Part shown: positions 34,091 to 58,941 of the stretch, one piece after another | How the letters are laid out: each line of letters opens with the position of its first letter | How positions within the stretch are numbered: position 1 is the first letter of the stretch | NCBI GenBank assembly: GCA_963971425.1 | Contig: OZ020518.1 | Location: 8,039,989-8,103,988, forward strand | Direction: 5' to 3' | Source of the DNA: Bryoerythrophyllum caledonicum | Lineage: Eukaryota; Streptophyta; Bryopsida; Pottiales; Pottiaceae | Length of the DNA stretch: 64,000 nt | Program-made: the position numbers and the translations under genes | The notes under the pieces: model-generated | Seen by the model: only the letters and a program-made list of their open reading frames with translations | What the model was told of the DNA's origin: nothing | Database searches by the model: none

Positions 34091-36479
34091 CTAAGCCATT
34101 TCTGCCATGCTGTCAGCAGGTGAGGTTGTGGTGCTCACCCACACGTCTTGCACGGAAGTAGGAGACGTTGGCCACACAGCGTCCTTCTTGATAAGCGGCT
34201 TCGCAGGGTCCTTGTTATCAAACGACAACTCCGAGTCCAGCTTCTTCACTCCGAATCCAATCGTCTGTATCCGCTGCAGCTCTGCAAGCACCTCTTTCAT
34301 CGACGGCCGGTCATCTTTCTCAGGCGCCAGGCACCGGAATGCAAGCTCCGCCACCTGCTCCACCATGATTTGGGCCTCAGGATAACTGGGGAAAACAGCC
34401 ATCAGATCCGGGTCAATGATTTCGTGCAACAACCCGGAGTGGATCTTCGCCACAGCTAAGGATGCTAGATTGATCTCCTTCCGCTCTCGTGCCATGTCAA
34501 CCGCTTTCTTCGCCGTCACAAGCTCCATCAACACCACACCGAAGCTGTAGACGTCGCTCTTGTCAGAGAGGTGGTACGACTCGTGGTAGTCTGGGTCTAG
34601 ATAACCTGGAGTTCCTTGTGGCGCAGTTGAGATGTGTGTGTGCTCCATGTTCACCACCAGGCGTGATAAACCGAAATCTGCAATCTTCGCCTTGAAGTCC
34701 TTGTCAAGGAGGATGTTCGTCGTCTTCACATCCCTGTGGAAGATGGGCGGGTCCACTAGGAAGTGAAGATATGCAAGAGCTTCAGCAGTTTGGATTGCAA
34801 TTTCCAACCTGGTGTCCCAAGAAAAATCTGCTTTGTAGCCTCCATGGAGATGCATAGATATGGACCCGTTGGGGACGTACTCGTAGACTAAAAGGGGTCG
34901 CTCCATGCAGCAACCAAGTAGCTGCACCAGGTGCGGATGGCGGACCTTTGAGAGTACCTCGACCTCGTTCAGGAACTGCTGGATTCCTTGGCTTCCGCCT
35001 TGGTTGAGTTTCTTCACTGCCACCATCCGACCGTCTGAAAGACGCCCCATGTAAACGGTTCCAAACCCGCCCCCTCCGAGCTCCTGCTTCGCGCTGAAGC
35101 TTTGGGTGGCGTGGTCCAGCTCCTTGTAGCTGAAGAGCTGTGTGAGATGGCCGGAGCCGTTGGATCGGATCTTCTCAAACGCCTTCTTGTCGTCGTACTT
35201 CACTCCGTCACGGGCGTAGCGAGATCGGCGGCACCAGAATAACATTACTAAGAGGAAGATTATAACCGCTGCGAGGAAACCACAAACCACACCTGCTACA
35301 CACATCCACAGAGAGAGGTCATTCCCTTGCTGTTAAAAAGAGACAATACATACATTCTACGTACCAAACGCAGTAGTTCAGAGCACAGCACCTTCTCAAA
35401 AACAGCGATATCCATTTTCGAAACCAGCATGGCATTGCTGACATGCCATTTCAAACTCAATGCATATATTCAACATACCAAACCCAGTAGTTTGGAGCAC
35501 GTAGGATCCAATACGTTCTCTCAACAACAAAGACATCCACTTTCAAAATCATGTGGCTTTCTTGACATGATAAAGAGATTGATAGGGGGCCCAACGCTAA
35601 CCAAGAATGATGTATAGTCTCCTTTTCTTGGCTTTGGTGTTTTCATATTTCCTATCTGAATCTCCTGCAGTTGGTGCAGCCTCTGGAGACGGCACTGACT
35701 GAGAGGTGAAATTCGTGAATGACTTATCTGCACGCATACGTAACAAGGCCCAAGTCAATCATTCTAGTTGCAACAAACAGAAATCCCTAACAACTCTTGC
35801 GTGCTCCAGCAAACGTACTTCTGTCGCCTCCAAATTGAAGCACCAACGAATACGTCGTGTTCAGAATATTCGGAAGGCCAGGAGGGGGCCTCTCGAACAG
35901 CTTGCAGGCGCTGAAAGCCGGATCTCTGAAGTTGTCCAGCGTCATAGGACAAGCCCACCGAGGTTCAGTCGGATTGAACACGCCCGAGCCAGAGCGGTCA
36001 CAGGGGCTGCTAAAATTCGAGAACGGAGTGCACCCTCCTCCGTTCACCGGATCGGGGCAATCCAGAAGCAGGGTGGTCGTGTTAGTGATGTTCATTTCTC
36101 TGAACCTGTTCGGGTCGAAGTCGCGGCAGGTCGCGGCCGATCCCTGCGGCACCAGCGAAAGCGTCTGGTTCCAGTAATCTATCTTGGTCACCTTGTACAT
36201 GTCTTGCGAAAACGTGTTATTCTCCGTGATGTTGAGGTACAGCGTCTCCCCCTGGCACTCGAACATGAACTTCGGATACGTGGAGTAGCACTTGTTGCTG
36301 AGCGCATCCGCCTTCAGGCGAAATGGGAACCTGATCGACGCATCAATGTGCGAACCGCATATCCTCCAGGGACAGTATCCGGACGCACTTGCGGCATCAC
36401 ATACGCTTATCACCATGCTCAACATCACCAATGCACACGCCAACTTCACCCCCGACATCGCCATCTCTCTGACTCCCAT
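34091..36479 (-). CDS. Receptor-like protein kinase, LRK10L/WAK-like ectodomain, 3 exons, 662 aa
   Basis: Plasma-membrane Ser/Thr kinase. Exons: 36479-35819, 35727-35602, 35292-34091. Donors are GTACGT and GTTAGC; both junctions are phase 1; total 1989 nt. Residues 1-29 are a signal peptide. The ectodomain has CPWRICGSHIDASIRFPF (Cys-rich GUB_WAK_bind type), several N-x-S/T sites, and CKLFERPPP. A Ser/Thr/Pro linker is encoded by exon 2. The membrane helix (about 258-282) spans the exon 2/3 join and is followed by WCRRSRY. Kinase: GGGGFGTVY (335-343), AVKKL Lys 356, HRDVKTTN (448-455), DFGLSRL (468-474), TPGYLDPDY. All catalytic residues are present and it is an RD kinase. Best match by eye is the Arabidopsis At1g18390/At1g25390 group. 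The ligand is unknown; wall oligosaccharide sensing is only a family-level guess. Confidence 0.9.
35345..35575. repeat. Two-copy tandem duplication in intron 2 of the receptor kinase
   Basis: CGTACCAAACGCAGTAGTTCAGAGCAC (about 35361) recurs as CATACCAAACCCAGTAGTTTGGAGCAC (about 35475), followed in both by TCTCAA-AACA..ATCCA-TTTC and a GGC(A)TT-CTGACATG block. Period is about 115 bp. It is purely intronic. Confidence 0.6.
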
Positions 36480-37300
36480 GCGCTCCCCAAAGCACTACTT
36501 CTAACCCCTCAAACCAACTCTCCTTGCCTTCCCAAACTCCCCGGCTAAATTCGACATCAATCTCACATCACATACACATCAATTCAACCTCATTCACTGT
36601 TGTCAATAGCGCAAAATCGACATCTAAAAGCCCTAGGGAAACCAAAGACACTTAATATAAAACTTACTCGGGCTAAACCGAACCCTGCCACATAAAACAC
36701 GAAACTTCAAAAAAAAAAAAAAAAACAGCAAACAAGATCTAAAACCAGAACCACACTCACCAAAAAACCTCGGCAATCCAACAATTCTGACCTCAACCAA
36801 ACCCTAGCAGAACAATTCTAACTCCAACCGGACTACCTCCGACTTAACCAAACCCTACCAAAACCGCACCACGACTTAAAACACAAAAAAAATAACGAAG
36901 AACGGAGACCACGCAACACACAAGACACAACCTCGAAAGCCCTCAACCTCGGCAATCTAACAATTCCGGCGGTTGAACCTCCAAAGTCAAAGCTCCGACA
37001 AGAACTAAACCCAACAACCCGCACTCATCCTCTCTGCGAGCTCCGTGTCGGGCACCACGGCGTCGTGAGTGCGCAACCCGCCATCGCCATCGAGCTCGAG
37101 CTCCCTCCCTCTCTCGCTCTCGCGCATTCCCTTCGCCATGATTCACGTCGCCGTCAGTCAATGCTGCAGAGCCGCCGCGAACCCGCCATTCCTCGTCCGC
37201 CGAACGAAAGTTTCACCAACTCCGACGAACGACGAACGGATGAAGAATCAAACCTAACTCCGTCACCTTTCTCCTAGTCTACTTATTACGTGGATTATGT
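36480..37300 (-). promoter_or_regulatory. Upstream region of the receptor kinase gene
   Basis: Read on the minus strand, a GAGAG-rich, GC-rich stretch at about 37140-37080 looks like a plant leader. It is followed by AT-richer DNA with a run of about 18 T (36710-36727) before the start codon at 36479. This suggests a long 5' UTR, possibly with an intron. No TATA box could be fixed. Confidence 0.35.
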
Positions 37301-37720: not shown

Positions 37721-37860
37721 GAAGAAGAAGAACGCTGGTGTCCAAGGGAGGCCAGCATGAATAAAGTGTGTTCGTTCCACTACTAAGACCATGCTCACCG
37801 GACGAGGAATTAGTAAGCTGGAACTACTTCTCCCTCTCGAGGGTAGACACTATGTAACAA
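37721..37860 (+). repeat. (GAA)n-headed short interspersed repeat, uninterrupted copy
   Basis: Starts GAAGAAGAAGAACGCTGG and includes GGCCAGCATGAATAAAGTGT, CCACTACTAAGACCATG and GGAACTACTTCTCCC..GAGGGTAGACACT. Its first ~75 bp are shared with the insertion at 41091-41165 (reverse orientation), and the whole with 12930-13960. It abuts the 3' end of the LINE on the minus strand. Confidence 0.6.
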
Positions 37861-37939
37861 GTAACCACGAAACCATGAAACCAACCAATCAAAGAAGTAT
37901 CGAGTGAAGCAGAGGAAATTTTATGGGGGGTCTTGTGTA

Positions 37940-38620
37940 TCAGGAAGGGCTTGGTTGTTTTCAATTTTGCGTTTGTGTAGAAGGATGGACATAGCGTATT
38001 GTATGGCAATGGCGTTAATATTCTTGAAAGTGTTTGTAATTGTGTTAGTAGGAATTTTGAAGATATCTTCTAGGGTTTTTATAGATAGGATAAAGGTGGT
38101 GGCGCAAGCGCCGGTTGTGATTACCATAAGGGGGTCCACCTTCCAGCCGAGGGTAGTGATGTCATCAATAAGGGGTTGGTATTTATTGATTTTGTTTTCA
38201 ATTGTTTCAGGGGAAAATCTGTCATTGCAGTATGTAAATTCGATGAATTGAATGGTATAGTTTTGGTTTATGTGGTCGGGTGGGGGGTCATTATATGGTT
38301 GGCCTCTAACACAAAGTATGTCGGGTTTGAGTCGAGCATTGCAGTGGCATCATTGGGTTTTACATGTACATGGCAGTAGCCATGATGGTACCGTGTTTTC
38401 TTGTGGGTTGTTATTAAAGGTGCCGGCATTCATGAGGATAAAACATCATGTTATGGGAGGTGATTAATTTACGGATTTCCCATACGGCTTTGTTATGTCT
38501 TTTGACAATTAGGGAGTGTATGTGGTGGTTATGACATTTAAGTAAAACATGTAACCATGTGTCAAGGTCCGTGGACGTGCATATTGGCCATGTTATGGAT
38601 GGGAATCTTTCTATTCCAAA
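37940..38620 (-). other. LINE C-terminal CCHC motif plus restriction-like endonuclease region
   Basis: Reading down the minus strand: C-x8-WLHVLLKCHNHH..KRHNKAVWEI has the spacing of the CCHC/CCHH knuckle that precedes restriction-like endonucleases in R2-type LINEs. After one frameshift and one TGA, CHCNARLKPDILCV gives a PD motif. Then IEFTYCNDRF and ENKINKYQPL supply the acidic residue and the K-x-x-KY expected of a PD-(D/E)XK fold. The region ends KRKIENNQALP, stop at 37921. Assignment rests on motif order, not on an alignment. Confidence 0.55.
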
Positions 38621-41080
38621 GAAGAGTTGTTTTCGGGCGTTTCCCATGTATTGTCCAGTACGAAATTTAATAAGGCATGTTATTTGTGAGCCAGTGATGA
38701 TAGGATTTTTCCAGAAATTTGTGGACAGTTCATTGTCTATATTGTTGTTGTTAGTCCACTTTTCTATGTTAGGGAAGTTATCTAAGATTGTGTCAAGGTT
38801 ATTATATAGGTCTTGTTTTTGGAGGTATTTGCTCAAAAATCTAATTGGGCCTTTATCGGGGGTGTTTTCTTTGGAGGGCCTATCTTCTTTTTGGAAGTAG
38901 TATGGGGTGGCGTGGGCATGTTCGTGTGGATCTTTGGCATTTTTGTGTGATTTTTTCCAGCCCTCTTTTGCTAGTTTATCCGCCTGTTCGTTACCATCAA
39001 TATCGGTGTGGGCTCGAACTTTGTGGATGGTTGTGATTTGTCTTCGTTTTAGTATCATTTGGACCATAGACTTTAGTATGGTTTGGTTGGGGTGACTATT
39101 GTGGAGGGTAGGGTTTGTTATTTGGGTGTTTAGTAAGTATAGTGCGTTAATGCAGTCTATGAAAATGTGTGCTAGTTCATTGTTGTATTTTGTTGTAACA
39201 ATTTCCAGTGTTTTGTGGATGGCCATAAGTTCTGCTCTAAGAATATTTTGTAGTCCATGCAGTCTTTTGGCTAATTTGATTTCTTTCGTAAAATTGTATA
39301 TTCCATAACCGGTTTTTTTTCTACACCAATTACCCAGACTGATAGGTTCTGGTGGTTTGAAGGAGCCATCGGTATAGGAGCAATATGCGGGATCAAATTT
39401 TGGTGAGGCGGTAGTTTGGTAGTTCGGGAGGGATGGAAGTGGTAAACTGTGATCTAGTGTATTGTTATTGAGGTTTAGTTTTGACCATTTTTTGCTTCTA
39501 ATGACTGATGTTTGTATAGGTGTTGGTGGCGCTATCTTTGTATATAGCCGATTTATGTTAAGAGTTTTTGCTATGGAGGTGAGTTCGGCAAGTTGATCTA
39601 GGGTGCCTAGGGTTTGGTTTTGGTGGTGGACGCATATTATTTGTAATGTAGATGGTTCAATTCTAGGCTTTTTTAGCTCGGGTGGGATAGTAGGTTCTTC
39701 GCAAGGAATTGAGTCTGCTTCAAATAATGCAAGGATGTGGGAATCTACAAATGGGCTGGACTGGGGATTAAAGTTTTGGTACCAATTTTTGTTTGGCGTG
39801 ATAATGAGTGTAGATGTGTGTTGTGGGTCGTTTATAGCAGCCAGGCGGGCCCAGTGTAGTGCTTGTCGAGTTTCTTCCTTGTTGTGGGGGTGCGCTATAC
39901 CATTACCGACCCATTTATAGTCAAAGGCTTTTCCCAAGGAGCCAAATATTTTATCTCTTTCAAAGGGTGAGTAGAATTTTTTTAATTTGGTGGAACATGT
40001 GACGGGGGAAGAGAAGTATGATTGTTCGATGTTAAAAGATGAGATTAATGAGTCTAAAATGGGTGTGGGTATTGTGTATTGTGCATTTTTTAGGGGATTA
40101 TTTTTTGGAATGCGGTATTTATATCTTTGGTATAGCCAAATCAGTTCGGTTTCAAATGGTTGGGTAGTTGATTCAATGTTTGTAGTGGTTTTTAGTTTCA
40201 TATTGTATTGATTCCATAGCCATTGAAGTCTAGTAGTGGGGATAGTGTGTAAATGTCAGCCATTTGCTTCGTATAGATGGGCTTGGTTGTTCTCTATTTT
40301 GATTGTGTTCGAGGTTGTGGTAATATCGTTTTCGGGGTTACATTCCATAGTATAGATGTTAAGGAGTGGGATGATTATAGGTGGAGTTACGGATCTTGAG
40401 TCTTGTAATTGTTCTTGGGGGTGGTGTGCTAGAATGATTTCCGAGTAGAATTTATCTTTGATTTTTTGGTAATATTGTTTTAGCTTTTCGGTGTTGTATG
40501 TGGAGGTATTATAGTCGTGTCTTGGAAAAAGGTTTCGTTAACGAAGCCATTTATTGAATGTATTGTTGTTGTGTTGCCATTGGCAAAGGTATTTTGTAAA
40601 GGTATTTTGTATTCTACTGGTATCTAGATGTTGTATATGTTTATGGCGTATGATGTTATTAATAGGATATGCGGTGGGATTTTTGATTATGTATGTTGAG
40701 GGGCGGGGGTGGTATGGGTATGGGAGGTTGGGGAGGTGGATTGGTGGTAGGGTGGCTCTTGGGAGGATGTTGTTATCGACGGCGATGAATGGGTCTTGGA
40801 GTGTGTGGGAGTATGGGTGTATGTTACAAGGGGTATCGCATATAGTTGGGCATGTTGGGTGGCAAAAAAGTTGTTTGGCAACGTTTAGGGCACTCTTGAT
40901 TAGTTTGGATGGGGTGAAGTGGTTGGTTTTGAAGTTTTCATTATTCATGATGTGTGTACTGTGTGGTAGGGTGATTTGTTTTAGTTCAAAAATATTTTTT
41001 GATAGGAGTTTTTGTAAAAGTTTTTGGGAGAGTTGGGCATTTAGTGTGTTAACGTTTCGTGTTTCTTGACACCATACTAT

Positions 41081-41175
41081 TTCTAATGGTAGTGGGCATG
41101 GACTTAGTGGTGGAATGAACGGACACTTTACTCATGCCCGCCCCCTCCGGAGACCGGCGTTCTTCTTCTAATGGT
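41081..41175. mobile_element. 75-bp insertion in the LINE with a perfect 10-bp target duplication
   Basis: TTCTAATGGT at 41081-41090 is repeated exactly at 41166-41175. The 75 bp between (AGTGGGCATGG..CGGCGTTCTTC) are foreign to the LINE frame. Their reverse complement matches the first part of the GAA-headed repeat at 37721-37800 and 12930-13290. There is an internal GGGCATG/CATGCCC pair but no full terminal inverted repeat. Ultra-short SINE or MITE; the 10-bp duplication proves insertion after the LINE. Confidence 0.75.
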
Positions 41176-44100
41176 GTTTTATCATAGAAGAAATTTGGAA
41201 GTGTACTTTTAAAGTGAACTTTAGCTACATGTTTTAATAGGTAGAATGTACGAGTTATTGGTGACCTTATACAATCTATTTTTTAAATTCTAGGTATATT
41301 TTCAGCACCACCATATTGAGCAAGTACATGTTGAGTTAACCCATTATATATTTTTCCGAGCCTACCTTTGTCATTTAGGGCATTTTGTAATTGTTCCCCT
41401 ATACAGCGTAGATAGGCATTTTTGAGGGAGAAGGCTTCAAGTCCGAATAGGTTATGTGGGAGTTGGGTTATTGCGTTTGCCATGCATTTTGGCATACCAC
41501 ATATGGTTTTTTGTATGGCTATAATCTTTTGGTCAAGTTTTTTAATGGCTGGCATAGAGTATGGTACTGCGTAGAAGCTGTATGCTATACCTGGGCGTAT
41601 TACGGTGTCAACCATTTTAATCTTTTGTTTCATAGTGGCCGAACATGTTGTTAATTCTTTGCATTGTTTAATGAGTTTTGTGGTTGTGGTGTGAATTTGG
41701 ATTTTCCATTTTAGCGAGGGAACAAGATTTGTACCTAGGTAAGCATATGCTTCGTTTTGGTGTAGTATGGGGATTGGTTGACCACGGTAGTTGATGTTAG
41801 AAGCTTGCATTAGGGCTTTAAATGTAGTTGGATTCATTTTGGATTTGTTTGGACATCCTATAGCCGTGCATTTTGGGACGCCTACGTCCATATCAGACCA
41901 TTTGCAATATTTGTCGATTTTATCAATTTGTGTTTGTAATGCGCTTATTTTGTTAGTTATAGTGGCAAGGTCATCGGCGTAGGCGGCGGAGTTTATGGTG
42001 ATTTGTGATGTACCAAAAGTATATCCATTATTGCCTCGTTCTAGCCAACAAATTAGTGGTTCTAAAAATATAATTAATAGGTATGGACTGAGGGTGTCTC
42101 CTTGTATAGTTCCTCTATGAATGGGGGATGGGTTTAGTTTTACCAAAGTGCTCACTGGTGTAGTAAGTAGATGATTGGGAGTAGATATTTTCAACTAGTG
42201 CAGTTGCATCTTTTGGATACCCAATGTCAGTCATTATTGTTAGTAGTCGGGTGTGGTCTATAGAGCCAAAGGCATTTTTGAAGTCAATATATAAAATATA
42301 TATGTCTTGGTTTGTGAACTGTGCATCTTCTAGTGCCGCTATTAAAGTTTGTATTTGTCTAGAAGTACTTCTCTCTGCTCTAAATCCCTCTTGACTATCG
42401 TGTAGGATTTTAAAATTTTCACCGTATGATGATAATATTGAAGTAAGTGTACTGGTGTAGAGTTTATATATTGTGTTGGCTAATGCTATTGGTCTATGAT
42501 TTGGTAAAATTGAAGGATCTTTTTTTTTGTATAGTAAGATTGTTGCACTTGTTTTCCATGAGGTTGGTATTTGTTTTTGTTTATAACAATGGGAGAAAAA
42601 TAGAAATACTAGTTTATTAAATCTTGGGGGCATGTTTTTAAGTATTGAATTTGGTATACGGCCTAGCCCTGGGGCTTTGTTGTTTCCTAGGTTGCGGAGA
42701 CATGTGTCATATATGGCTCTATTGAAGTATGTGTGTAACGGGGTTTCAGGCTCACCTCGTTTGTCTAAGGTAAATCCATCTAGGTCATGCCATGGGTATT
42801 GGCGTACTGCGCATGTGCATTTGATAGGATGTTGTGGTTGGTAGTTGCATGTTGGTACGGCGGGTCTATTATTTTTTTTCTATTGGTTGAATATTTCGTT
42901 TGCTATGTCTTTTGGGCTAGTTAATACGTTATTATATTGGTCAGTGATACAATCTACTGGTGGGGATTCTAGTTTTTAAAAAACTTTTCTATTTATTTTT
43001 TGGGCGCTAGTTTTGTATAGTTGTCTGTATTTTGAGATGGCTTTTCTAATGTTATCTTTGGTGTATTTTGTAGTTACTTTCCGGGCTTGTATATTGGCAT
43101 TTTTTGCGATTTGTGCAATGTTTTTAATCCATGTATCATGGGGTAAGTTCGGGAGGGGTGGGGCAGGGATTTGGGTGTGGTGCAAGGTTAGTAATTCGTT
43201 ACATATGGGATGATTACGCCATTGTGGGTTTTTTTTACGATTCTAATAGTTTTCCGTATTATGTGGTATGTGGTTACGTGTTGTTTCCATGTTTTGGACA
43301 ATTTGCGGGGTAGATAACCGCCTTGTTGTGAAGATCTATTTGTCATTTGTGGTATTGGTTGGGCTTTACAAGTTTGTTCTAATGTATTGGAGATATTATT
43401 TATAAGTGTATCTAGGGTGTGGCACGTTTCGTGCCATTGTGTTGGAGAGAGTTGGTTGTTATTTTCAAGGGTGTTTATGAGAGAGTCTATTTGTATGGAG
43501 TTTTTTTCAAAAAACTTTGTGTTGAATTTTTCTAAATTATCTTTTGGGATGGGATTTAGTATTCCGATAGTATCCTTGTTTGTGATTATAGGGGTGCAAT
43601 TAATTAGTATGTTATTTGGGATGTGAAGTTGTACAGGTGAGTGATCGGAATTGAGAGTAGTATCTTTGTTTGTTGTAGAGGTGTATTGTGTAGTGTTATT
43701 TGTATTTATGTAGAAGCCGTCTATTAGGCTTAAATCACTATAGTTATGTCCACCTTGTCTGGAGTATTGTGTATCAGTGTTTATGTAGGTAAATTTTAAG
43801 TTTTCTGTGAAGTGGCGCCATTGGTAGTCTATGGTTTGGAGGGGGGTATTATGGTTTCCGTTTTGTTTACCAATTAAAGCTATGTCTCTGTTGAAGTCTC
43901 CACATAACAAGTAGGTATGGTTAGGATTTTGATTTATTAGGGATGTAATGGTGTTTTGTATGTCTATAGTAAATCTAGTATCTTTGGGATGGGAGGGCAT
44001 ATACATGTGAAAGATTAACCATGCTTGTAGTGGTTGATTAGTAATTTTAATTATTTGAAGGTAGGGAGATATTTGCATTGGGGTAGGAATTTTTTTGATG

Positions 44101-45008
44101 TTGCCCGGAAAAGCATATTTTTTGTGTATTAGTGTAAGGAGGCCACCTCTGCCCGGTGTGTATGGTCTACGTTGTTGGATGCACCTTGTTAGTGCATGTG
44201 TATTGTTAAAAATAAGTTTGTAGTCTTGAAATATATTTTGTATGTATTTTGTAGATTTTGTGGCCGATATTTTTGTGTCTTGTGTGACTATGATGGCCGG
44301 TGGCGTATTTGTATGTGTGACCAATGTTTGTAGGCTAGGAAGAGCGGCATTCCATGTGATTATTTTTGTGTTTTCATTGTTTGGGTTGATGTTTTGGTGT
44401 TGTGGTGGAAGGTAAGAGGGTGGGGGAGGTGGATGGGCATATTCTGGTATGGTGTTGAAGCATTTTAGTGCCTCATTATTTAGATTGTTAGGAAGGTAGG
44501 GGAATTTTTGTTTTACTATGTTGTTTGAGGGGGGTACGGTTTGACTATGTAAAAAGTCGTATAATTCTTCGTGTATTGAATTTCTGTGGTTTATGATATT
44601 TAGGTTATCTTCAAGAAATTTTGTATAAGAGTGTGTGGTGTGGATGTGTCTTTCGGGTGGGTTTTGTAGGTTTGATAGGGTTCATAATAATGTGTTAGTC
44701 CATGTAATTATATTCGGGTTTTGTAAATTTAGAAGACGGTTACATTCATCTAAGTTTGGGTGGGTGGTGATTACTAGGGCATAGAAAATATGTGTTGGTG
44801 GGTGTGTATTTTTTTGTTGTATGTATTGGGCAATATTTGGATGTGTTGTGATGTGTAGTTGATGTAATATATGTGTGGGTTTAAAAAGAGGTGAAAATGT
44901 CTGTGCAATGTGTTTATATTCCGGCTGTAGTTTAATGATATTTGGTATGAAGTAAATTTTGGCGTTTTTTTTATGTGTTGTGGGATGTCTTTTTAGTATA
45001 TTGGGCAT

Positions 45009-45059
45009 GGGTCTCGGATTGGTTTCTATATCTCCACTTAGTAGTAATAGGATTTTATA
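45009..45059 (-). other. 2A-like peptide motif at the front of LINE ORF2
   Basis: In the same frame as the APE domain, the minus strand encodes YKILLLLSGDIETNPRP followed by Met. The 2A consensus is D(V/I)E-x-NPG followed by P, preceded by a hydrophobic Leu-rich run. Only the Gly of NPGP is changed to Arg (AGA, one transition from GGA). 2A-like peptides are known at this position in several animal and trypanosome LINEs. As it stands the motif is probably inactive. Confidence 0.7.
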
Positions 45060-45096
45060 GTGTGAAGGTTTGTTGTGTTGTTTTTGGTTTATTGGT

Positions 45097-45790
45097 TTAT
45101 GTGTATATTGTTGGTGTTTTCTTGTTTTTGTTTTTTGTGTTTTTATTTGTGTACGTGTGTGTGTTTTTGTTTGTGGGATTTGTCATGGTCTTGTTTTTTC
45201 CCCTGGTTATAAGTGTTATTTTTGGATGTGCATTTCTTTTTGAGTTTGTGTGGGCTTGTTTATAGTTTTTTTGGTGTGTTTTTGTGTGTATTTTTGTGGT
45301 ATTTTGTAAGTGGATTTTTGTTCGCAAGTGTGGAGGTGTGAGTGTGTGTATATGTATATGTGTGTATATATTATGTGCGTTTTTGGGCTTTTGTGTGTGT
45401 ATTTGGTTGTGTGGGCGTGTTTTTGTGTATGTGTGTATATGTGTATTTGTGTTTTTATTTTTTGTATTTATATGTGTGTGCGAGTATGTGGGTGTTTGCG
45501 TGTTTGTCTTCATGTGTTTATGTGTGCGTATGAGTGTGTATGCAATTATTTTGATCTTTTGAGGTGAGTTTGTATTGGTGATGGTTTGTTTGTTTGTGGG
45601 TTTGGGGGATGTGTGTAAGAGGTGACATTCAAGGGGATAAATGTTCTGATTGGTTGGAGGTGTGTGTGGTAGTAGGGCTGGTGTGTTGTGTGTGGGTGTA
45701 TGAGGTGTGTTTGTGATGTAGAAACGTGATAATGGAGTATGAGTGTTGAGAGTGTGTATCTTGTATGTGTTTATCCAAGAGATATTCATA
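45097..45790. repeat. TG-rich low-complexity tract between LINE ORF1 and ORF2
   Basis: The plus strand is almost C-free, dominated by TGTGTGT, TATGTG and TTTTTG words. The complementary strand has a 230-codon open frame made almost only of Thr, His, Asn, Lys and Pro. The frame is a by-product of (AC)n-type sequence and differs from the ORF2 frame. It may be the inter-ORF spacer or the worn N-terminus of ORF2. Confidence 0.6.
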
Positions 45791-46274
45791 CCGTAATGAT
45801 ATATGCAATGACATTGTTTATAGATAAGTGGGGTGAAACCCCAAAATCAATACAAGCATGTGCCATGTGGTCTCCAAGTCATGCAATTAGTTGTAAGTAT
45901 GTTGTAGCAAAAGTAGGGAGTATGTCTAGAGTAGGAGGTGATTAGTGGAGGGGGGATAAAGACTAAGGTGAGGCTAAAGTATACTACAGTTATAGTAGTG
46001 AGGTGATATATCATTAGTATAGGCAATGTAGAGTAAGAATGGAGACTTTGGAAGTTTACAACTAGTTGTAGTGGTGTGGGGGGTACTAATGTAGTAAGCA
46101 TGAGAGTACTAACTAGTATATTGTAGTGATGAAAAGAGAACATACTAGGGGGGATAATAGTTTCAATGTATATGGGGGTGTTTGAAGAGAATAGGAGAGT
46201 ATGGAGGAGAGAGGTGCTAACCTTGTCCATCCATGTGATATCATATTGGTGATGTCTTTGGCAGTAGTCCTTGG

Positions 46275-47822
46275 TCAATCCACGTTTGAGTCGTCTTCTA
46301 AGGCTGGGATGTTTGGTGGTCGCGATCCTGTGATTTGTTGCATAGCCATAAGTGCAGAGGTCATCAATTTCTCAACATTTGAGAGCTTCGCCTGTAACTC
46401 ACTGGTGCGGTTATCGGTGTAGGCCTTCGTATCTTTGATGATGTCCTCTCTGAAGGTGGAGAGTTCTTGCCGCAATCTCTTGTTGCCTGCATCTATAATG
46501 GAGGTCATTTCTAAAATGGTAATGCTAGCAGGAGCTGGGGTAGCTTGGAGGGACTCCACGGTGTTTACTAGGGCTTTATTGATGTCATTAAAGCCCCACT
46601 TCTCCAATAATGCGGTGGTGGGTGGATCATCGCCTTCGAGGCTGCGGCGGTGGGGAGAAATCTCCACTTGATATTGTCCTACGGTGAATGTCTTGTGTAG
46701 GAATTGGCAGTAGATAATGGGATTAGGGAATTGCAGGTTGGCACTGCCATTGTGCATCCTTCTCTGCTGCCTGTGAAACCATAGAGAGATGACATTCTTG
46801 GCCTCAAAGGTTTGATGGATAGCTGCCGTGGTTTCTGCCACGTTCATGAGGATGGGAAGGTGGGAAAGGGTGACCGTTAATGCGTCCTTCTTGGCTCTAT
46901 CAGTTGGAGAGAGGCCTCCAGAGCTACTAGCCCGTACTGGTATCACCTCATGGTGTGTAGTAATTTGGTGGAGTTCAAACTTCTTGGCCTATTGAGGGGT
47001 TGAGGCAACTATAAAGGCGTGTGAATCCTCATGTACCTTCTGCACATCTGTGATCTCTAATTCCAAGTTTCTCGAGAAACTATTTGTCTCCACATCCTGG
47101 AAGAGGATGTAGGCAGTCACGCCTTTGAGGGATTCACTCTTGATGCGCACTGATAAATTCTTCCGTGCTATTGCATGGAAAATTTTGCAAACTTTCCCTA
47201 AGGAGGCTTGTCCTATAGGGTCCAAATGAAGGATGAAGTATCTAGTACCTTGAAGGAGGGCAATAGCATCTACCTCTGGCCTGAGGAGATGTAGTTTGAT
47301 AATGCCTGACCATACACCTTTTTGTCCCTCTTTTTTGACCCCTTTGCATAAAACGGCCATTGGGTCCATTAGATTAGTGCCTAATGGTATTTTCATGTGC
47401 TCGAGCCTAGCTAGGACAAGCCTCTTTACATCATCATGATACATGGGTTTGTAGTGTTGGCCTTTGACGTTGTCGTTGCAAATTGAGGAATATAATAGTT
47501 GTGGGATCCTAGAGTAGGCCACAACGGCGCTGATGGCCTCCTCTGCTTTTTCTTTGGGTACTCCCCGAGTGATCATGTCTCTAACACCTTCTCCACTGAA
47601 TAGGGGCTCCTGACTTGCATCTATAGCAAGCTTTTCCATAGTGGAGAAGCCCAACGAAAACCAAAATGATGAAAGGTCAGGGATGGAGACCTGGATAGTG
47701 GGATAATTACCTCGAGCTTTTTTGGATGGGGTTGGACCTCCACTTTTCCTTGAGATTAAATCTTCATTTGTTGTGGCCTTTATAACTCCCGTGTGGGGGT
47801 TTTCGGTGTCCATGGCGTCCAT
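46275..47822 (-). pseudogene. LINE ORF1-like protein interrupted by one TAG
   Basis: A single frame of 516 codons with one in-frame TAG at 46989-46991 (CAA TAG GCC). The first half begins with a Lys-rich SRKSGGPTPSKKARG segment, then a mixed alpha/beta region (YILFQDV..LELEITDV) that could be an RRM-like fold. The second half has VEISPHRRSLEGDD and a C-terminal coiled-coil-like stretch (AKLSNVEKLMTSALMAMQQI). No zinc knuckle was seen. Position 5' of ORF2 and the ORF1-like size suggest an RNA-binding ORF1p. Function is inferred from position only. Base composition is ordinary, unlike ORF2. Confidence 0.55.
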
Positions 47823-48154
47823 AACTTGTGGAAGACGTGGGCCTGGAGTTGCTGGACTAGGGATTCAAGTGTTGGGGTAGGTCGATAATGGGTGAAATAG
47901 GTCGTTGGTTGTGTTTGGGGAAGGTTGGAGGGGATGTGGTAGGTCGTTGGCCTGTTGAGAGAGGTTGTGGAGGGGTTGGGTAGGTCGCTAGTCTTGATGG
48001 GGTGGGTCGCAAGTCTGGTTGGGTGTGTCGCAGGTCTGGTTGGGTAGGTCGCGAGTTAGGGTTTGGGTGGGTCGCTGTTCCGGGTTTGGGTGGATCGCTG
48101 TTGCGGTAGGGGGGGTCTCTCGTCTTGGGACTGTTTCCACGAGTGTAAGCAAGC

Positions 48155-51269: not shown

Positions 51270-53686
51270 TAAGGGCCGCTTTACACTATGGTGGAGAACT
51301 CCACCGGTCAAGAATTCAAGGGAAATGGAGCAATATGATTGGAGAAAAAATTGTTCTTCACCGGATTGGGTTTACACTACGGCCAAGACTTGACCGGTGG
51401 AGAATTTCAAGCATGGATGAAAAAATGACATGGATGCCTATGTGGCAACACTTTTTTGAAGAGGTCTTCTCCTCTGGATTAGTTTCTTGTCCGACCTCAA
51501 CCCCCCGGACAAGAAACCAAACCACTGGAGAAGAAGAACTTACTTAAAATATTCTTCCCCCCCTGAAATTCGCAATTCGTTGCAAATCCTCTGATACAGC
51601 TTGCATCACCAAAGAGGTGTTTCTCTTTGGCTTTGCAATACTCTGCAGAAATCTTCAGTTACCAAAGTAGTGTTGGTGAGTTCTCTAATCTTTCTGCATT
51701 AATGTTTTTTGAAAAACCTAGACTTTTAAAAAATTTCCTGCAGATCAAGTTCTTGATTCTTCTTCCATGAGTGTCTAATTTGAAAAAAAATTGTTGGGTT
51801 AGTTGCGCAATTTTTTCTAGTTTGTGTGGTACAATTTTCAAGTTGATGCGATGAGTATTGAGTGAGTTACTGACATTTTTGTGGACGGGGGTTCTGCCGA
51901 AAACATTCTGGGTCAGTTTTGAACAGTCCAATTTTGGCGTGCTGTAACTTCTTGATGGAAGGTCGTTTTTCACTGTTTGTGTTTCGGAAAGATGCGCATT
52001 TTTGTCTAGTTTCTTTGGTACAATTTTTAAGTTGATGCGATGAGTATTGAGTGAGTTACTGCCATTTTAGTGGAAGGGGGTTCTGCCGAAAACATTCTGG
52101 GTCAGTTTTGAACAGTCCAATTTCGGCGTGCTGTAATTTCTTGATGGAAGGTCGTTTTCCAATGTTTGTTTTTTTTAAAAGATGCGCATTTTTGTCTAGT
52201 TTCTTTGGTACAATTTTCAAGTTGATTCAATGAGTAACGATTGAGTTACTGACATTTTCGTGGAATGGGGTTCTGCCGAAAAAATTCTGGGTTAGTTTTG
52301 AACAGTCCAATTTCGGCGTGCTGTAACTTCTTAATGGAAGGTCGTTTTCCGAAGTTTGTTTTTCTGAAAGATGCGCCTTCTTTTCTAGTTTCTTTGGTAC
52401 AATTTTCAAGTTGATACAATGAGTATTGAGTGAGTTACTGACATTTTAGTGGAAGAGGGTTCTACCGAAAACATTCTGGGTCAGTGGGTCAGTTTTGAAC
52501 AGTGAAATTTCGGCGTGCTGTAATTTCTTGATGGAAGGTTGTTTTTCAATGTTTTTTTTTTCAAAGATGCGCAATTTTGTCTTGTTTGTGTGGGACAATT
52601 TTCAAGTTGATGCAATGAGTATTGAGTGAGTTACTGACATTGTTGTCAAGGCATATCTTATCTTTATTTTTATTTTTATATTGAAATCTTTTGAGATTTG
52701 TTTTTCACACTCTTCCAATGTGTAAAAATCATTTCATTTCTACTAGTTGGGTAAATTATTGTCCACATAAAAAACAAAGTCGTGAAGTTTCACACTAATT
52801 TTATTTTTTCAAATTGTGTGTTATTTTTCATATTTAATTTTTATAATTACTGTATTGAAAATATTGTATACCAACGTCATATCGTCTTTTTACAATATGA
52901 TCTCAAGAAGGATTGAAATTTGAAACAATATTGATTTTATGTCAATATTGATATGGAATGCGATTATGACCCATATGGAATCTATATGACCATAAGAAAT
53001 ATATATCTCTGATATGTTTTACATATGAACAAAAGTGCCTTCTATTTTCCTTGATGTAATTTTGGTAAATAAATTTTGAACAACTGAATTGATTTTTTTT
53101 TTGTAGTATAAAAATTGTAAAGTAGAACCCACAGTAAGCACATAGATGTGTTGTTACTTAAACTAATGTCAACATCAACAAGCCTTATGTGGTAATTGAA
53201 GAAAAGGCAAGCAAATAATTAAAAGGTTTGAAAGAGATCAAGTATAACATGGTTGTGTGTGCTAACATCATGTAAATTGTAGTCATGTGAAATTTTTACC
53301 ACACAAAGTAGACAAGTAGGGGCTTTTTTCCCAACAACTATTACTACATTTAGACATTTGATGCAAAAGATATAAATTTTTGTAGTTCAACGGAGCCCAT
53401 AATGTACATAATATGTCCATGGAGACCATTAGAAATTGTCGTTTTCATTGGCTAGCATAAACTTTCTTGGTGGTGAAGTTCACCGGTGGTCTTCACCTTA
53501 TGAAATTGGCCGGTGGACTTCACCGTTGGGTGTTTACACTACTAACCGGTGAAGACTTCTTCATGCATTACTTTATTCTTTTTTTGTCTTGTCCAACATC
53601 CACCGCTCGCCTCAAATAACCATGTCTTGGCCGAGACTTCTTGACCGGCCGGTGGAGTTCTCCACCATAGTGTAAAGCGGCCCTAA
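51270..53686. mobile_element. PIF/Harbinger-like element, 2,411 bp, TAA target duplication
   Basis: TAA (51270-51272) precedes GGGCCGCTTTACACTATGG, and the right end is its complement (CCATAGTGTAAAGCGGCCC) followed by TAA (53684-53686). The inverted repeat is perfect for 35 bp and continues after a 4-bp indel. GGGCC ends with a 3-bp TAA/TTA duplication are typical of PIF/Harbinger. No transposase is recognised inside, only a satellite array and AT-rich DNA. Subterminal ACCGGTGAAG-type words repeat near both ends. Confidence 0.8.
51790..52640. repeat. 189-bp satellite array inside the Harbinger-like element
   Basis: About 4.5 head-to-tail units. The marker AGTTGATGCGATGAGTATTG starts at 51841, 52030, 52220, 52409 and 52605, giving periods of 189, 190, 189 and 196. 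Each unit also has GTTCTGCCGAAAACATTCTGG and GGCGTGCTGTAA. The period is 63 codons, so minus-strand frames run over parts of it, but stops and repetition argue against coding. Confidence 0.85.
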
Positions 53687-54597: not shown

Positions 54598-56384
54598 ATT
54601 ATTAATATTCATGTTTGCAATACACATTGTATGTCAATGTGAACTATCACCATGTGCATCTTCAATTCCTAAGAGCAAAAGTCTTCAAGTCCCGAGGTGG
54701 GCTTTTGCAAATCTCGTGCAACTTTCTTTGATTGCAATGTCTATTTTTAGTTCTTGAAATTTTGTATGAAGATGCAAGAAGGTAAGGAGTTGTGTGGCTA
54801 AATTAATTTTAGTTGCATTAGATCAATAGAATTTTTCTATGTTAAATTTATTCTCATCCAAAGTTTTGCTTTACCTCTATTGAATGCGATAATTTTTTTA
54901 ATATAAGTAAACAGTATGATCTTATTTGAGATTTTTAGAATAAAATTCTTCCATAGTGCAAAACTTTCATTCCAAGGAGATACAAAGTTTTCACACCTTG
55001 TCAAACAAGATGTTGAAACATTTCTATTCCCTCATAAAAAATTTACTCATTTGATTTAAAAAAGATTCCCTCATAATTTTTGTTTTTTACTCATTTGATT
55101 TAAAAAAATATTCCCTCATAATTTTTGTTTTCTACTCATTTGATCATTTTTACTTCAAAATGTTTCACGAATATCTACTTTGGCAGTTTGGATTTCATTT
55201 TTTTTTGAATTAAGTATATTATATATGGAATTTGTTTTGGCTAATTTTAAACCTTCCTTCATTGCATATTTTAAAAATGAAATTGCTTCATTCTCTTTCA
55301 CGTTTGAAAATTGGCTTACTAGGAACCAACATCATGTACTGTACATTTGTGGCCCCTTGCATGGCCTCGTTGTTTAAGGGTTAAGCAAACATGTATGTAC
55401 AGTACAATAGGGTGACATTCAAATTGGCCGTTTAGTAGTTCCAGGGATAGTGTCCTACACTGCTGCCAACTTTGACACCCTCCCCAAAGCTGAGAAATTG
55501 TTATTTTACCATGAAAATTTGGGGACAGCATCATCTTTATGTTGAAAACATGCATATCAAATTTCAAGTCCAGGAGACTTATACAAAAAAACTTATGCAA
55601 GATCTACCAACATGGGATAGCTGTGAGAAAAGTGTCACAGCTGCCAACTTTGACACCCTCCCAAGAATTGAGGAAATTTTTTTTGCCCATGAAATTTTTG
55701 GAGCAAAAACATTTTTATGTTGTTTGCATGTGTGGAAAATTTCAAGTCCAAAAGACCCATACGAAAAATAATATTCCAAATCTACCAACATGTGTAGTTT
55801 TGAGAAACAAAGGAGAAAACCATTTTACTACTTCCAACTTTGACGCCCTCCTTAGGATTGAGTTTTTGTTGATACATAATGAAATTTTTGGCACAAGATC
55901 ACCTCTACGCTGGTAACATGTGGGATAAATTTCAAAGCCAAAAGACATACATAAAAAAAGTTATTCCATATCTATCAACATGTGTAACTATGATAAACAA
56001 TTTGAAGGTCATATTGAAAATGTCAAAGTATCTTTGACACCTCATGCTTTTTCGTTGAACTCAATCATGTGAGTAAGCCACCAAACATAAATGCTTCTCA
56101 AAAAGATCAATAATATCTAAATGAAGAAGTGAAGAGGTGTTCCATGCAGAAGAATCCACTTGGCCATAAAGTGTGCATTAGACACATGACAAATTTTTTC
56201 TTCTAAATATCTATTGAACACTATGTAAAGGGAATGGTGTGTGTGATTTGTGATAGACTAAATGTTGAGACAATCCTCAAAATAGAGAGTGTTGTATTGT
56301 GGGATGCATGAGTGTTGATTCACATTGGGCATACATGATGAGTGATTAAGAGCAAAACAATTTTTCATGTATGCATATGGGCTT

Positions 56385-56580
56385 GTGTTTTGGCGACCCT
56401 TCTCTCCTCTCTGCTCCAGCGCCTTGGCTCCCTTCTCTCCCCCTTGCTCTGCTCCAGCCCTGTTCTCTTTCCTCTGCCAATTGTCACGTGTCAATCCTGC
56501 AACCCCCTTTGCTCTGCTCTAGCCCCTTGGCCCCCTTCTCTCTCCCTTGCTCTGCTCTAACCCCTACTCTACTGCTGTAG
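56385..56580 (+). repeat. CT-rich direct repeats upstream of the transposase
   Basis: CTTCTCTC..CTTGCTCTGCTC(C/T)A and CCTTGGC(T/C)CCCTTCTCTC recur twice within 200 bp. The whole stretch is C/T-rich on the plus strand. It lies between the left arm and the start codon, so it could be the element's promoter; not testable here. Confidence 0.5.
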
Positions 56581-56607
56581 CTAGCATCACGCACTCTATA
56601 AGTTTAT

Positions 56608-57618
56608 GATGGCAATTTCAGATGAAATTCGTGCTCGCATCATAGGTTTGAGTGAGGGAGGATTTACAGGAGTTCAAATTGCAGCTACTACTAGAGTTCC
56701 TATTAGAACAGTTACAAGGTTAGTAAAAACATTTAGAGAAGATGGAACCTACAAGCGCAAACCTTGCGGAGGAAGTCACGCTTAAAAAGCTTAGTGATAG
56801 AGATGTTCGTAGTATTGTACATTACTCAAAAATTCATCGTTGCTCTTCACTCTCAGAGATTACCAATGCATGTCCTACTCAAGTGTGTAGACGTACTATT
56901 CAAAGGGTCTTACATAAAAATGGCATTTTTAGTCGAATTGCAGTCAAAAAACCTTTTTTGACACCTCGTCACATGTCTCAACGATTAGCTTTTGCTCAAA
57001 AGTACCGCGGATGGAGTGCAAAAGAGTGGGAGCGTGTTGTTTGGACAGATGAATCTACTTTTGAAATTGGAAAAAATTCTCGGCAAATTCATGTTTGGAG
57101 AAGTGCATATGAGCGTTATTCATCAAGTTGTCTAGCTTCTACTTTTAAAAGTGGAAGGACTTCTTTAATGATTTGGGGCGCATTTGCCGGAGGATAAAAG
57201 TCAGAACTTGTCTTTATGCCTAAAGGTCAACGTTCTGCTAAGGATTTTATAGAAGTGGTTTACGATGCCAAATTGGTTCATTTCATGGGTTAAATTCCAC
57301 AAGGAGTGCTTATGGAAGATGGGGCACCCGTCCATAGGAGCAAAATATGTGAAGAATGGAGACAAAGCCACCTTCTCGAAAAATCTCAACTGGCCTCCAA
57401 ACTCTCCCGATCTCAATCCAATCGAGAACGTTTGGAGGATGTTAAAAGATGTTGTGCAACGTGGAAAACAATGCCCTGGAAGCTTAGATGTGTTGAAGGT
57501 AGTTCTTGAAAGAGAGTGGAAGTTAGTCAATGGTACAAAGCTCCTTCAACTATGTCATTCTATGCCCTCTAGGTTACTAGCAGTGATTGACGCTAATGGA
57601 GGACATACACGTTGGTAG
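56608..57618 (+). pseudogene. Tc1-like DD34E transposase, broken
   Basis: Cut-and-paste transposase of the surrounding element. The N-terminus (56608 on) has paired helix-turn-helix features (GFTGVQIAATTRVPIRTVTR; then HRCSSLSEITN, CRRTIQRVLHKNGI). Catalytic residues: first Asp in WTDESTF (about 57050), second Asp in MEDGAPVH (57318-57320), Glu in PDLNPIENVW (57424-57426). The second Asp to Glu distance is 106 nt, i.e. the DD34E spacing plus one inserted base. Breaks: a frameshift near 56760, TAA at 57195-57197, a TAA near 57292, and a frameshift near 57350. All three catalytic acids are kept, so it died recently. Confidence 0.85.
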
Positions 57619-58941
57619 ATATGGAATAACTTTTTTGTGTACATCTTTTGGCTTTGAAATTTATCTCACATGTTACTAGCGTAGAGATGATCTTGTGCCA
57701 AAAATTTCATTATGTATCAACAAAAACTCAATCCTAAGGAGGGCGTCAAAGTTGGAAGTAGTAAAATGGTTTTCTCCTTTGTTTCTCAAAACTACACATG
57801 TTGGTAGATTTGGAATATTATTTTTCGTATGGGTCTTTTGGACTTGAAATTTTCCACACATGCAAACAACATAAAAATGTTTTTGCTCCAAAAATTTCAT
57901 GGGCAAAAAAAATTTCCTCAATTCTTGGGAGGGTGTCAAAGTTGGCAGCTGTGACACTTTTCTCACAGCTATCCCATGTTGGTAGATCTTGCATAAGTTT
58001 TTTTGTATAAGTCTCCTGGACTTGAAATTTGATATGCATGTTTTCAACATAAAGATGATGCTGTCCCCAAATTTTCATGGTAAAATAACAATTTCTCAGC
58101 TTTGGGGAGGGTGTCAAAGTTGGCAGCAGTGTAGGACACTATCCCTGGAACTACTAAACGGCCAATTTGAATGTCACCCTATTGTACAGTACATCATGAT
58201 TAATACATAAAGTTGAAAACTTTGCAATACAAACATCGATGCCAATTGAAGTCAAAGTTTGCTATTTGTCTTAATGTTTATCATCACTTTATATACCAGA
58301 ATCATCCAATCCGTACGATCAAATGTTATGAAAATTTATGAGCATATATTTTTAGTATTTTAGATTAGGGTCTAAAAATTAGAGATAGAAATAAGAAATT
58401 TAAAATTCATACCCACTTTTTCCACTAAAAAAACCATTTTGAAAGGGATTTGGTGAGATATTATCAAGGATTTGTAGGGTTTAAATCAAATCCATATGAT
58501 TTCTAAAACTTCTTGCAAGATCCATTCAAAACTAAAATAGTATACCTTCCAAAATCTACAAATTTCAATATTTACCGTAGGTTAAGGGCACCTTCGGCAC
58601 TTGGATGCCGAATAATTAATTAAAGCCAAAAAAGTGGGTTTGGCTTTCTAAAAGAGATTTTAGAAGATTTCGGCAGGAGTTCACATATTACTATAATTAG
58701 CCTATTTTGACAGCCAAGGGGATTGAACCCAAGACCTCAAGCTCCCTACTTGGAGCTCTTTTGCACACACTTCCAAGAATCAAGGCTTTCCAAGCCATAA
58801 CTCCCCTTTGATGTCCTTTGTGCTCAAAAATTTGGTATATTAATATTTTCTTCAATTTCGGCATTTTTACTCAATAATTTCCCAAATAATTCGTCATGCC
58901 TTTTTTGAATTAATTATAGCCGAAGGTGCCCTTCACCTACG

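What the first reader, a model, noticed from the sequence alone, without database searches (positions are those of the whole stretch)
45009..45059. 2A-like ribosome-skipping peptide at the front of the LINE ORF2
LLLLSGDIETNPRP followed by Met, in the APE frame, differs from the 2A consensus only by Gly to Arg (one base change). 2A-like peptides precede APE domains in some animal and trypanosome LINEs. In a plant LINE it suggests that intact family members separate an N-terminal peptide from the enzyme.
Basis: partly seen in the sequence, partly recalled or inferred. Interest (0 to 1): 0.85.

Follow-up and report, generated by a model that had tools for sequence, protein, structure and literature searches.

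The report
Decayed 2A peptide in plant LINE
A broken plant LINE retrotransposon carries, just before its first enzyme domain, a near-perfect copy of the peptide that some viruses and animal transposons use to make ribosomes skip a peptide bond, but the key glycine is arginine in this copy, so the working form can only be inferred.

Summary
The motif is real. On the minus strand, 45050..45009 encodes LLLLSGDIETNPRP, followed by Met. It matches the L-rich class of StopGo/2A sequences at 12 of 13 fixed positions; the release glycine (p18) is Arg. It is the only such hit in six frames, and chance would give about 4e-9 in this window. It shares the frame of an APE endonuclease. Downstream, on the same strand, are an R2-like reverse transcriptase, a PCIF1-type (cap methyltransferase family) domain and RNase H, in a land-plant context (WAK-type kinase gene nearby).

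This copy cannot be working. p18 is not Gly, no in-frame ATG precedes the motif after the preceding stop, a stop separates it from APE, and ORF2 has at least three frame changes. The best reading is a decayed but homologous 2A from a family whose intact members put a short leader before the enzyme. That rests on one copy: the genome search did not complete (21 tries), and scans of viral, prokaryote-genome and plasmid collections gave no relative. "NPGP in the family" is therefore untested.

A 2A-bearing LINE is a known kind. A land-plant host, an R2-like RT with an APE, and a PCIF1-type domain make it a new variant.

The parts
45009..45050 (-). 2A-like motif LLLLSGDIETNPRP (p18 Arg in place of Gly); Met codon follows at 45008..45006
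44682..45182 (-). 166-aa open frame holding the motif; no in-frame ATG before the motif; ends in a stop at 44684..44682
43188..44681 (-). 497-aa frame, same phase as the motif: APE-type endonuclease (PF14529 E=5.2e-6, 26.8 bits, just under the cut-off of 27.4; PF03372 E=0.0056, under its cut-off). GDFN and SDH strings present (motif names recalled)
42976..43242 (-). 88-aa frame between APE and RT, in the RT's phase; no Pfam hit; taken as part of ORF2 by position
42115..42879 (-). N-terminal half of the reverse transcriptase (RVT_1 E=2.1e-12); best solved relatives are R2 elements
41283..42194 (-). C-terminal half of the reverse transcriptase with YADD (RVT_1 E=1.3e-10); R2 proteins E=5.4e-13, LINE-1 ORF2p E=4e-4
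40538..41131 (-). 197-aa frame between RT and the PCIF1-type domain; no family match
38414..40255 (-). 613-aa frame: PCIF1-type domain (PF12237, aa 18-154, E=1.5e-11) then RNase H (PF00075, aa 291-432, E=1.9e-11)
37921..38349 (-). 142-aa frame with KPD...IEFT and KINKY strings that resemble an R2-type restriction-like endonuclease; not confirmed by any search, and its place in ORF2 is inferred
   Evidence: resemblance recalled
46275..47864 (-). ORF1-like frames (47864..46989 and 46988..46275, stops included), same strand, upstream of a CA-rich spacer; membership in the same element inferred

Best explanation
The motif is a mutated remnant of a real 2A/StopGo peptide at or near the front of ORF2 of a land-plant LINE. 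In intact ancestors, ribosomes translating ORF2 would make a short leucine-rich leader. The LLLLSG and D-I-E-x-N-P-G residues would then engage the exit tunnel and block peptide-bond formation after the glycine, so the leader is released and the enzyme (APE, RT, PCIF1-type domain, RNase H) is made from the following proline on. Shown here: the motif, its class, its frame, its neighbours and its improbability by chance. From the literature: the mechanism and the importance of NPGP. Inferred: that the family form had Gly at p18, an upstream start, and used the skip. This copy itself almost certainly does not skip.
For: 12 of the 13 fixed positions of LLLLSGD[VI]ExNPGP match, all but p18; expected by chance 4e-9 in the window. 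LLLLSG-like is one of four main hexamer groups drawn from 1,900 representatives of 9,968 viral StopGo sequences; L-rich motifs go with p12 = D; T is among the favoured p15 residues (PMC12846837 sections 9 and 10). In phase with the APE frame; 2A sequences are reported in APE-type LINEs (Odon 2013, seen only as a citation; text not held). 2A sequences work in plant cells (PMC4981915 passages).
Against: p18 is Arg. In 2,465 octapeptides p18 is almost exclusively G, and the variants flagged as functional are at other positions. Alanine scanning of EMCV 2A-2B confirmed that NPGP matters (PMC4231674 passage). L-rich motifs prefer p15 = S; here it is T. No in-frame ATG lies upstream of the motif after the preceding stop. 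A stop lies between motif and APE. A codon-usage model gave no clear signal for this frame around the motif: 2.7 against 2.6 for another frame at 45060; clear only from about 44760 downwards. No second copy was seen, so NPGP in the family is untested.
Confidence: 0.68

Rival explanations
1. The family never used skipping: ORF2 starts at the Met directly after NPRP (45008), and the upstream 2A-like codons are a relic of an older ancestor, or this lineage lost the 2A by fixing Arg.
For: The only in-frame ATG of the 166-aa frame is exactly there; the codon signal upstream of the motif is at most 0.5 in any frame at 45180-45420; p18 is Arg.
Against: 12 fixed motif positions, including Gly, Asp and Glu codons on a strand with about 7% G, have survived in a copy with several disabling changes, which suggests constraint until recently.
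Confidence: 0.2
2. The NPRP form is the family's own and acts as an N-terminal hydrophobic leader (signal-like or pausing peptide) without bond skipping.
For: An N-terminal 2A of a sea-urchin NLR protein acts as a signal sequence when skipping fails (PMC4981915 passages).
Against: The hydrophobic stretch here is only about five residues (ILLLL), and one copy cannot tell a family state from a private mutation.
Confidence: 0.08
3. Chance resemblance.
For: The core octamer alone at up to 1 mismatch would be seen by chance about 0.007 times per window, and the first stage may scan many windows; the 14-mer was tested after seeing the hit.
Against: The 14-mer expectation is 4e-9, and it is in phase with an APE frame, as in LINEs reported to carry 2A.
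Confidence: 0.02

Closest known systems
2A-bearing APE-type LINEs (Odon et al. 2013; trypanosome L1Tc, Heras et al. 2006; both known here from citations only)
   Same: 2A-like sequence in frame with an APE-RT protein
   Different: Land-plant host; p18 Arg in this copy; RT nearest to R2 among solved structures; PCIF1-type domain and RNase H downstream. How far this differs from each published element could not be checked, as the papers are not held
LLLLSG-class StopGo/2A sequences of RNA viruses (PMC12846837)
   Same: Upstream hexamer, p12 D, p13 I, p14 E, p16 N, p17 P, p19 P
   Different: p18 Arg; p15 T where L-rich motifs prefer S; in a retrotransposon, not a virus; the survey found no evidence of natural use by plant viruses
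Dualen/RandI LINEs of green algae (PMC3636483, PMC4640811 and PMC3747384 passages)
   Same: APE, RT and RNase H in one element; a C-terminal frame that may be a restriction-like endonuclease; green-lineage host
   Different: Restriction-like endonuclease not confirmed here; PCIF1-type domain not mentioned in the passages seen; table 3 of PMC3747384 lists RandI for green algae but L1 and RTE for flowering plants
PCIF1 cap m6Am methyltransferase (Pfam PF12237; PDB 6irv, 6irx)
   Same: Sequence similarity over about 140 aa
   Different: The residues aligned to NPPF read HPHN in this copy; embedded in a LINE ORF2

Membership tests
StopGo/2A peptide | Core D(V/I)ExNPGP | tested here: not met
   DIETNPRP: six of the seven fixed positions fit, p18 is Arg
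StopGo/2A peptide | Recognised upstream hexamer class | tested here: met
   LLLLSG, identical to the class name in PMC12846837 section 10
StopGo/2A peptide | Translated: in frame with a start upstream and a coding region downstream | tested here: not met
   No in-frame ATG before the motif after the stop at 45185..45183; stop at 44684..44682 before APE; copy is broken
StopGo/2A peptide | Measured bond skipping | not testable with these tools
   Needs a translation assay
2A-bearing APE-type LINE | APE and RT domains downstream in one element | tested here: met
   PF14529 (E=5.2e-6, just under its cut-off) and RVT_1 (over its cut-off in both halves) on the same strand
2A-bearing APE-type LINE | NPGP in the family consensus | not tested
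   The genome search did not complete (21 calls); no relatives by the search for related loci, the DNA search (39, 89, 90, 91) or tblastn of plasmids (21)
Dualen/RandI | APE plus restriction-like endonuclease | tested here: inconclusive
   APE supported; candidate RLE frame has no sequence match of that kind, a pLDDT 39.6 model (97) and no meaningful fold match (106)
Dualen/RandI | RNase H | tested here: met
   PF00075 E=1.9e-11
Dualen/RandI | RT phylogeny | tested here: inconclusive
   Both RT halves score best with R2 among PDB sequences; no tree built, no Dualen RT at hand
Plant L1 | RT of the L1 clade | tested here: inconclusive
   R2 5.4e-13 against LINE-1 4e-4 for one half; no LINE-1 among the 8 sequences at E<=1 for the other; argues against, but no tree and no plant L1 compared

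The most novel reading that the evidence does not exclude
A land-plant LINE family, possibly of the dual-endonuclease Dualen/RandI type, uses a working 2A to release its enzyme and also carries a PCIF1-type (cap m6Am methyltransferase family) domain next to RNase H: natural 2A recoding in a land plant, together with an RNA-methylation-type domain in a LINE polyprotein.
Probability: 0.35. Interest if true: 0.8.

Novelty: new variant of a known kind. Interest (0 to 1): 0.55.

Why it matters
StopGo is described as common in RNA viruses and rare in cellular genes, and a 2026 survey found no evidence of natural use by plant viruses although 2A works in plant cells (PMC12846837). A plant transposon family with a 2A of the same L-rich class would show natural use in the plant lineage and would bear on how 2A sequences arise or move between viruses and LINEs. 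A PCIF1-type domain in the same polyprotein raises the question whether a LINE can influence methylation at its own mRNA cap.

Tried and rejected
Relatives: the search for related loci with the second RT half and with the APE frame (20) in viral contigs and with the PCIF1/RNase H frame in genome contigs (38): 2, 10 and 11 stretches matched a pattern, none encoded a relative. tblastn of the second RT half against plasmids: none (21). DNA patterns for GDIETNPGP (39, viral), an L-rich GD[VI]ExNPGP (91, viral) and the RT string IQGDTLSPYL (89 viral, 90 genome): 0 matches each; no pattern scan had a positive control. These collections are viral, prokaryotic or plasmid, so a plant family could be absent from all of them. 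tblastn of eight frames of the element (not the 88-aa and 142-aa frames) against the window found only themselves at E<=1 (16), so no second copy was seen in the window.

Restriction-like endonuclease at the C-terminal end: the only two PDB sequence matches at E<=10 are a phage tail sheath protein (0.025) and a zinc-finger protein (4.7) (57); no Pfam match at E<=1 (58); a model of mean pLDDT 39.6 without an alignment (97); the fold search on it gave 0 matches at E<=0.001 and listed mostly ribosomal, phage and homing-endonuclease proteins from E 0.04 up, meaningless for such a model (106). Kept as a lead only.

The codon-usage model (75) does not fix where ORF2 starts. Rejected: chance (40). 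Not held, so not read: Odon 2013 (17), Rao 2025 (44), Luke 2014 (45), Heras 2006 (46), Kojima and Fujiwara 2005 (67).

Full report
What is there. The minus strand of 45009..45059 reads YKILLLLSGDIETNPRP, then Met at 45008..45006. The motif proper, LLLLSGDIETNPRP, is 45050..45009. It lies in a 166-aa frame without stops (45182..44682), in phase with the 497-aa APE frame (44681..43188); one stop codon, 44684..44682, separates them.

More than chance. In six frames of the 64,000 bases the core D[VI]ExNPGP has one hit at up to 1 mismatch and the same single hit at up to 2. The 14-mer with LLLLSG has that one hit at up to 4 mismatches; 12 of its 13 fixed positions match. An independent-base model expects 0.007 and 4e-9 hits respectively at up to 1 mismatch. 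The 14-mer was set after the hit was seen, but its first six letters are a published class of StopGo upstream motif and not of my making (PMC12846837 section 10).

What the literature says of such a sequence. In that 2026 study (sections 9, 10, 13 and 14 read; outline and passages) LLLLSG-like is one of four main hexamer groups, L-rich motifs go with D at p12 and S at p15, and T is among the residues favoured at p15 overall. Position p18 is almost exclusively G; the rare functional variants it names are at p12, p13, p14, p16 and p19. It adds that other variants were partly active in mutant studies; I did not see p18 data among them. G18, with P17, allows the loop that moves the P-site tRNA end. 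Alanine scanning of EMCV 2A-2B also found NPGP important (PMC4231674 passage). I conclude (inference) that NPRP does not skip. The same study found no evidence of natural StopGo use by plant viruses, while StopGo works in plant cells; a sea-urchin 2A worked in Nicotiana benthamiana (PMC4981915 passages).

The element. The APE frame is supported by PF14529 (E=5.2e-6, 26.8 bits, just under the curated 27.4) and by the presence of an RT downstream; it has no PDB sequence match at E<=1, and its only NCBIfam matches are far under their cut-offs, to proteins including exodeoxyribonuclease III. On the same strand follow the two RT halves (RVT_1 E=2.1e-12 and 1.3e-10), a 197-aa frame without a match, and a 613-aa frame with PF12237 PCIF1_WW (E=1.5e-11, 44.6 bits against a cut-off of 31.1) and RNase H (E=1.9e-11). 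Of 177,635 distinct PDB sequences the only two matched at E<=10 by the PCIF1-type region are PCIF1 proteins (E=0.015 and 0.064); where they read NPPF (motif name recalled) this copy reads HPHN. Both RT halves score best with R2 proteins; LINE-1 is far weaker for one half and absent at E<=1 for the other. A further frame, 38349..37921, has strings that recall an R2-type restriction-like endonuclease, but no search or fold confirmed it. If it is one, the element would combine APE and RLE as Dualen/RandI does (PMC3636483 and PMC4640811 passages). Table 3 of PMC3747384 (passage) lists RandI for green algae, and L1 and RTE for flowering plants. Upstream, 47864..46275 holds ORF1-like frames; that they belong to the same element is inferred from strand and position, and a codon model trained on ORF2 stretches favours another frame there at 47220-46860.

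Host. A gene with GUB_WAK_bind (E=1.7e-10) and a protein kinase domain (E=5.6e-47) within 34091..36494 points to a land plant. The species is not known to me.

State of this copy. Read in its longest open phases, ORF2 changes frame at least three times up to the RNase H frame (near 43.2, 42.15 and 41.2 kb) and holds at least five in-frame stops (ending at 44682, 42976, 42880, 40538 and 40256); if 38349..37921 continues it, a fourth frame change follows near 38.4 kb. The only in-frame ATG of the 166-aa frame is the one after NPRP. So the copy is dead, and its Arg may be one more decay change or a family state; one copy cannot tell. The codon model is clear for the motif's frame only from about 44760 downwards; around the motif two frames score alike (2.7 and 2.6 at 45060), another frame leads at 45120 (3.0), and at 45180-45420 no frame scores above 0.5. 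This leaves the start of ORF2 open.

What could not be done. Viral, prokaryotic and plasmid collections gave nothing, which says little about a plant family. Ten literature searches were run, each with a capped listing of 1 to 20 papers. In those listings and in the passages read I saw no report of a 2A in a land-plant LINE, nor of a PCIF1 domain in a LINE. The key survey of eukaryotic 2A sequences (Rao et al. 2025, known from a citation) and Odon et al. 2013 are not held, so novelty is not established.

Verdict. A decayed, homologous 2A at the front of a plant LINE ORF2 is the best reading (0.68). That intact family members skip is plausible but unshown.

Noticed in passing
window 38414..40255, minus strand: A PCIF1-type (cap m6Am methyltransferase family) domain sits between RT and RNase H of the LINE; the residues aligned to NPPF read HPHN. 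No such LINE was seen in the capped listings.
   Followed up: partly
window 37921..38349, minus strand: C-terminal frame with KPD...IEFT...KINKY strings, recalling an R2-type restriction-like endonuclease; unconfirmed.
   Followed up: partly
window 41092..41169 and 37723..37798: About 79 bases, 82% alike in inverted orientation, one inside the LINE near a change of frame and one beyond its 3' side: possibly a small insertion.
   Followed up: no
window 45180..46270: Strongly CA-rich (minus strand) spacer between the ORF1-like frames and ORF2, with long stop-free frames, partly rich in Thr and His, that are probably compositional.
   Followed up: no
window 55387..58201: Two arms of about 595 bases, 98% identical and inverted, about 1.6 kb apart; each arm holds a two-copy 178-base tandem repeat.
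   Followed up: no
window 51804..52641: Tandem array, 189-base unit, 4.4 copies.
   Followed up: no
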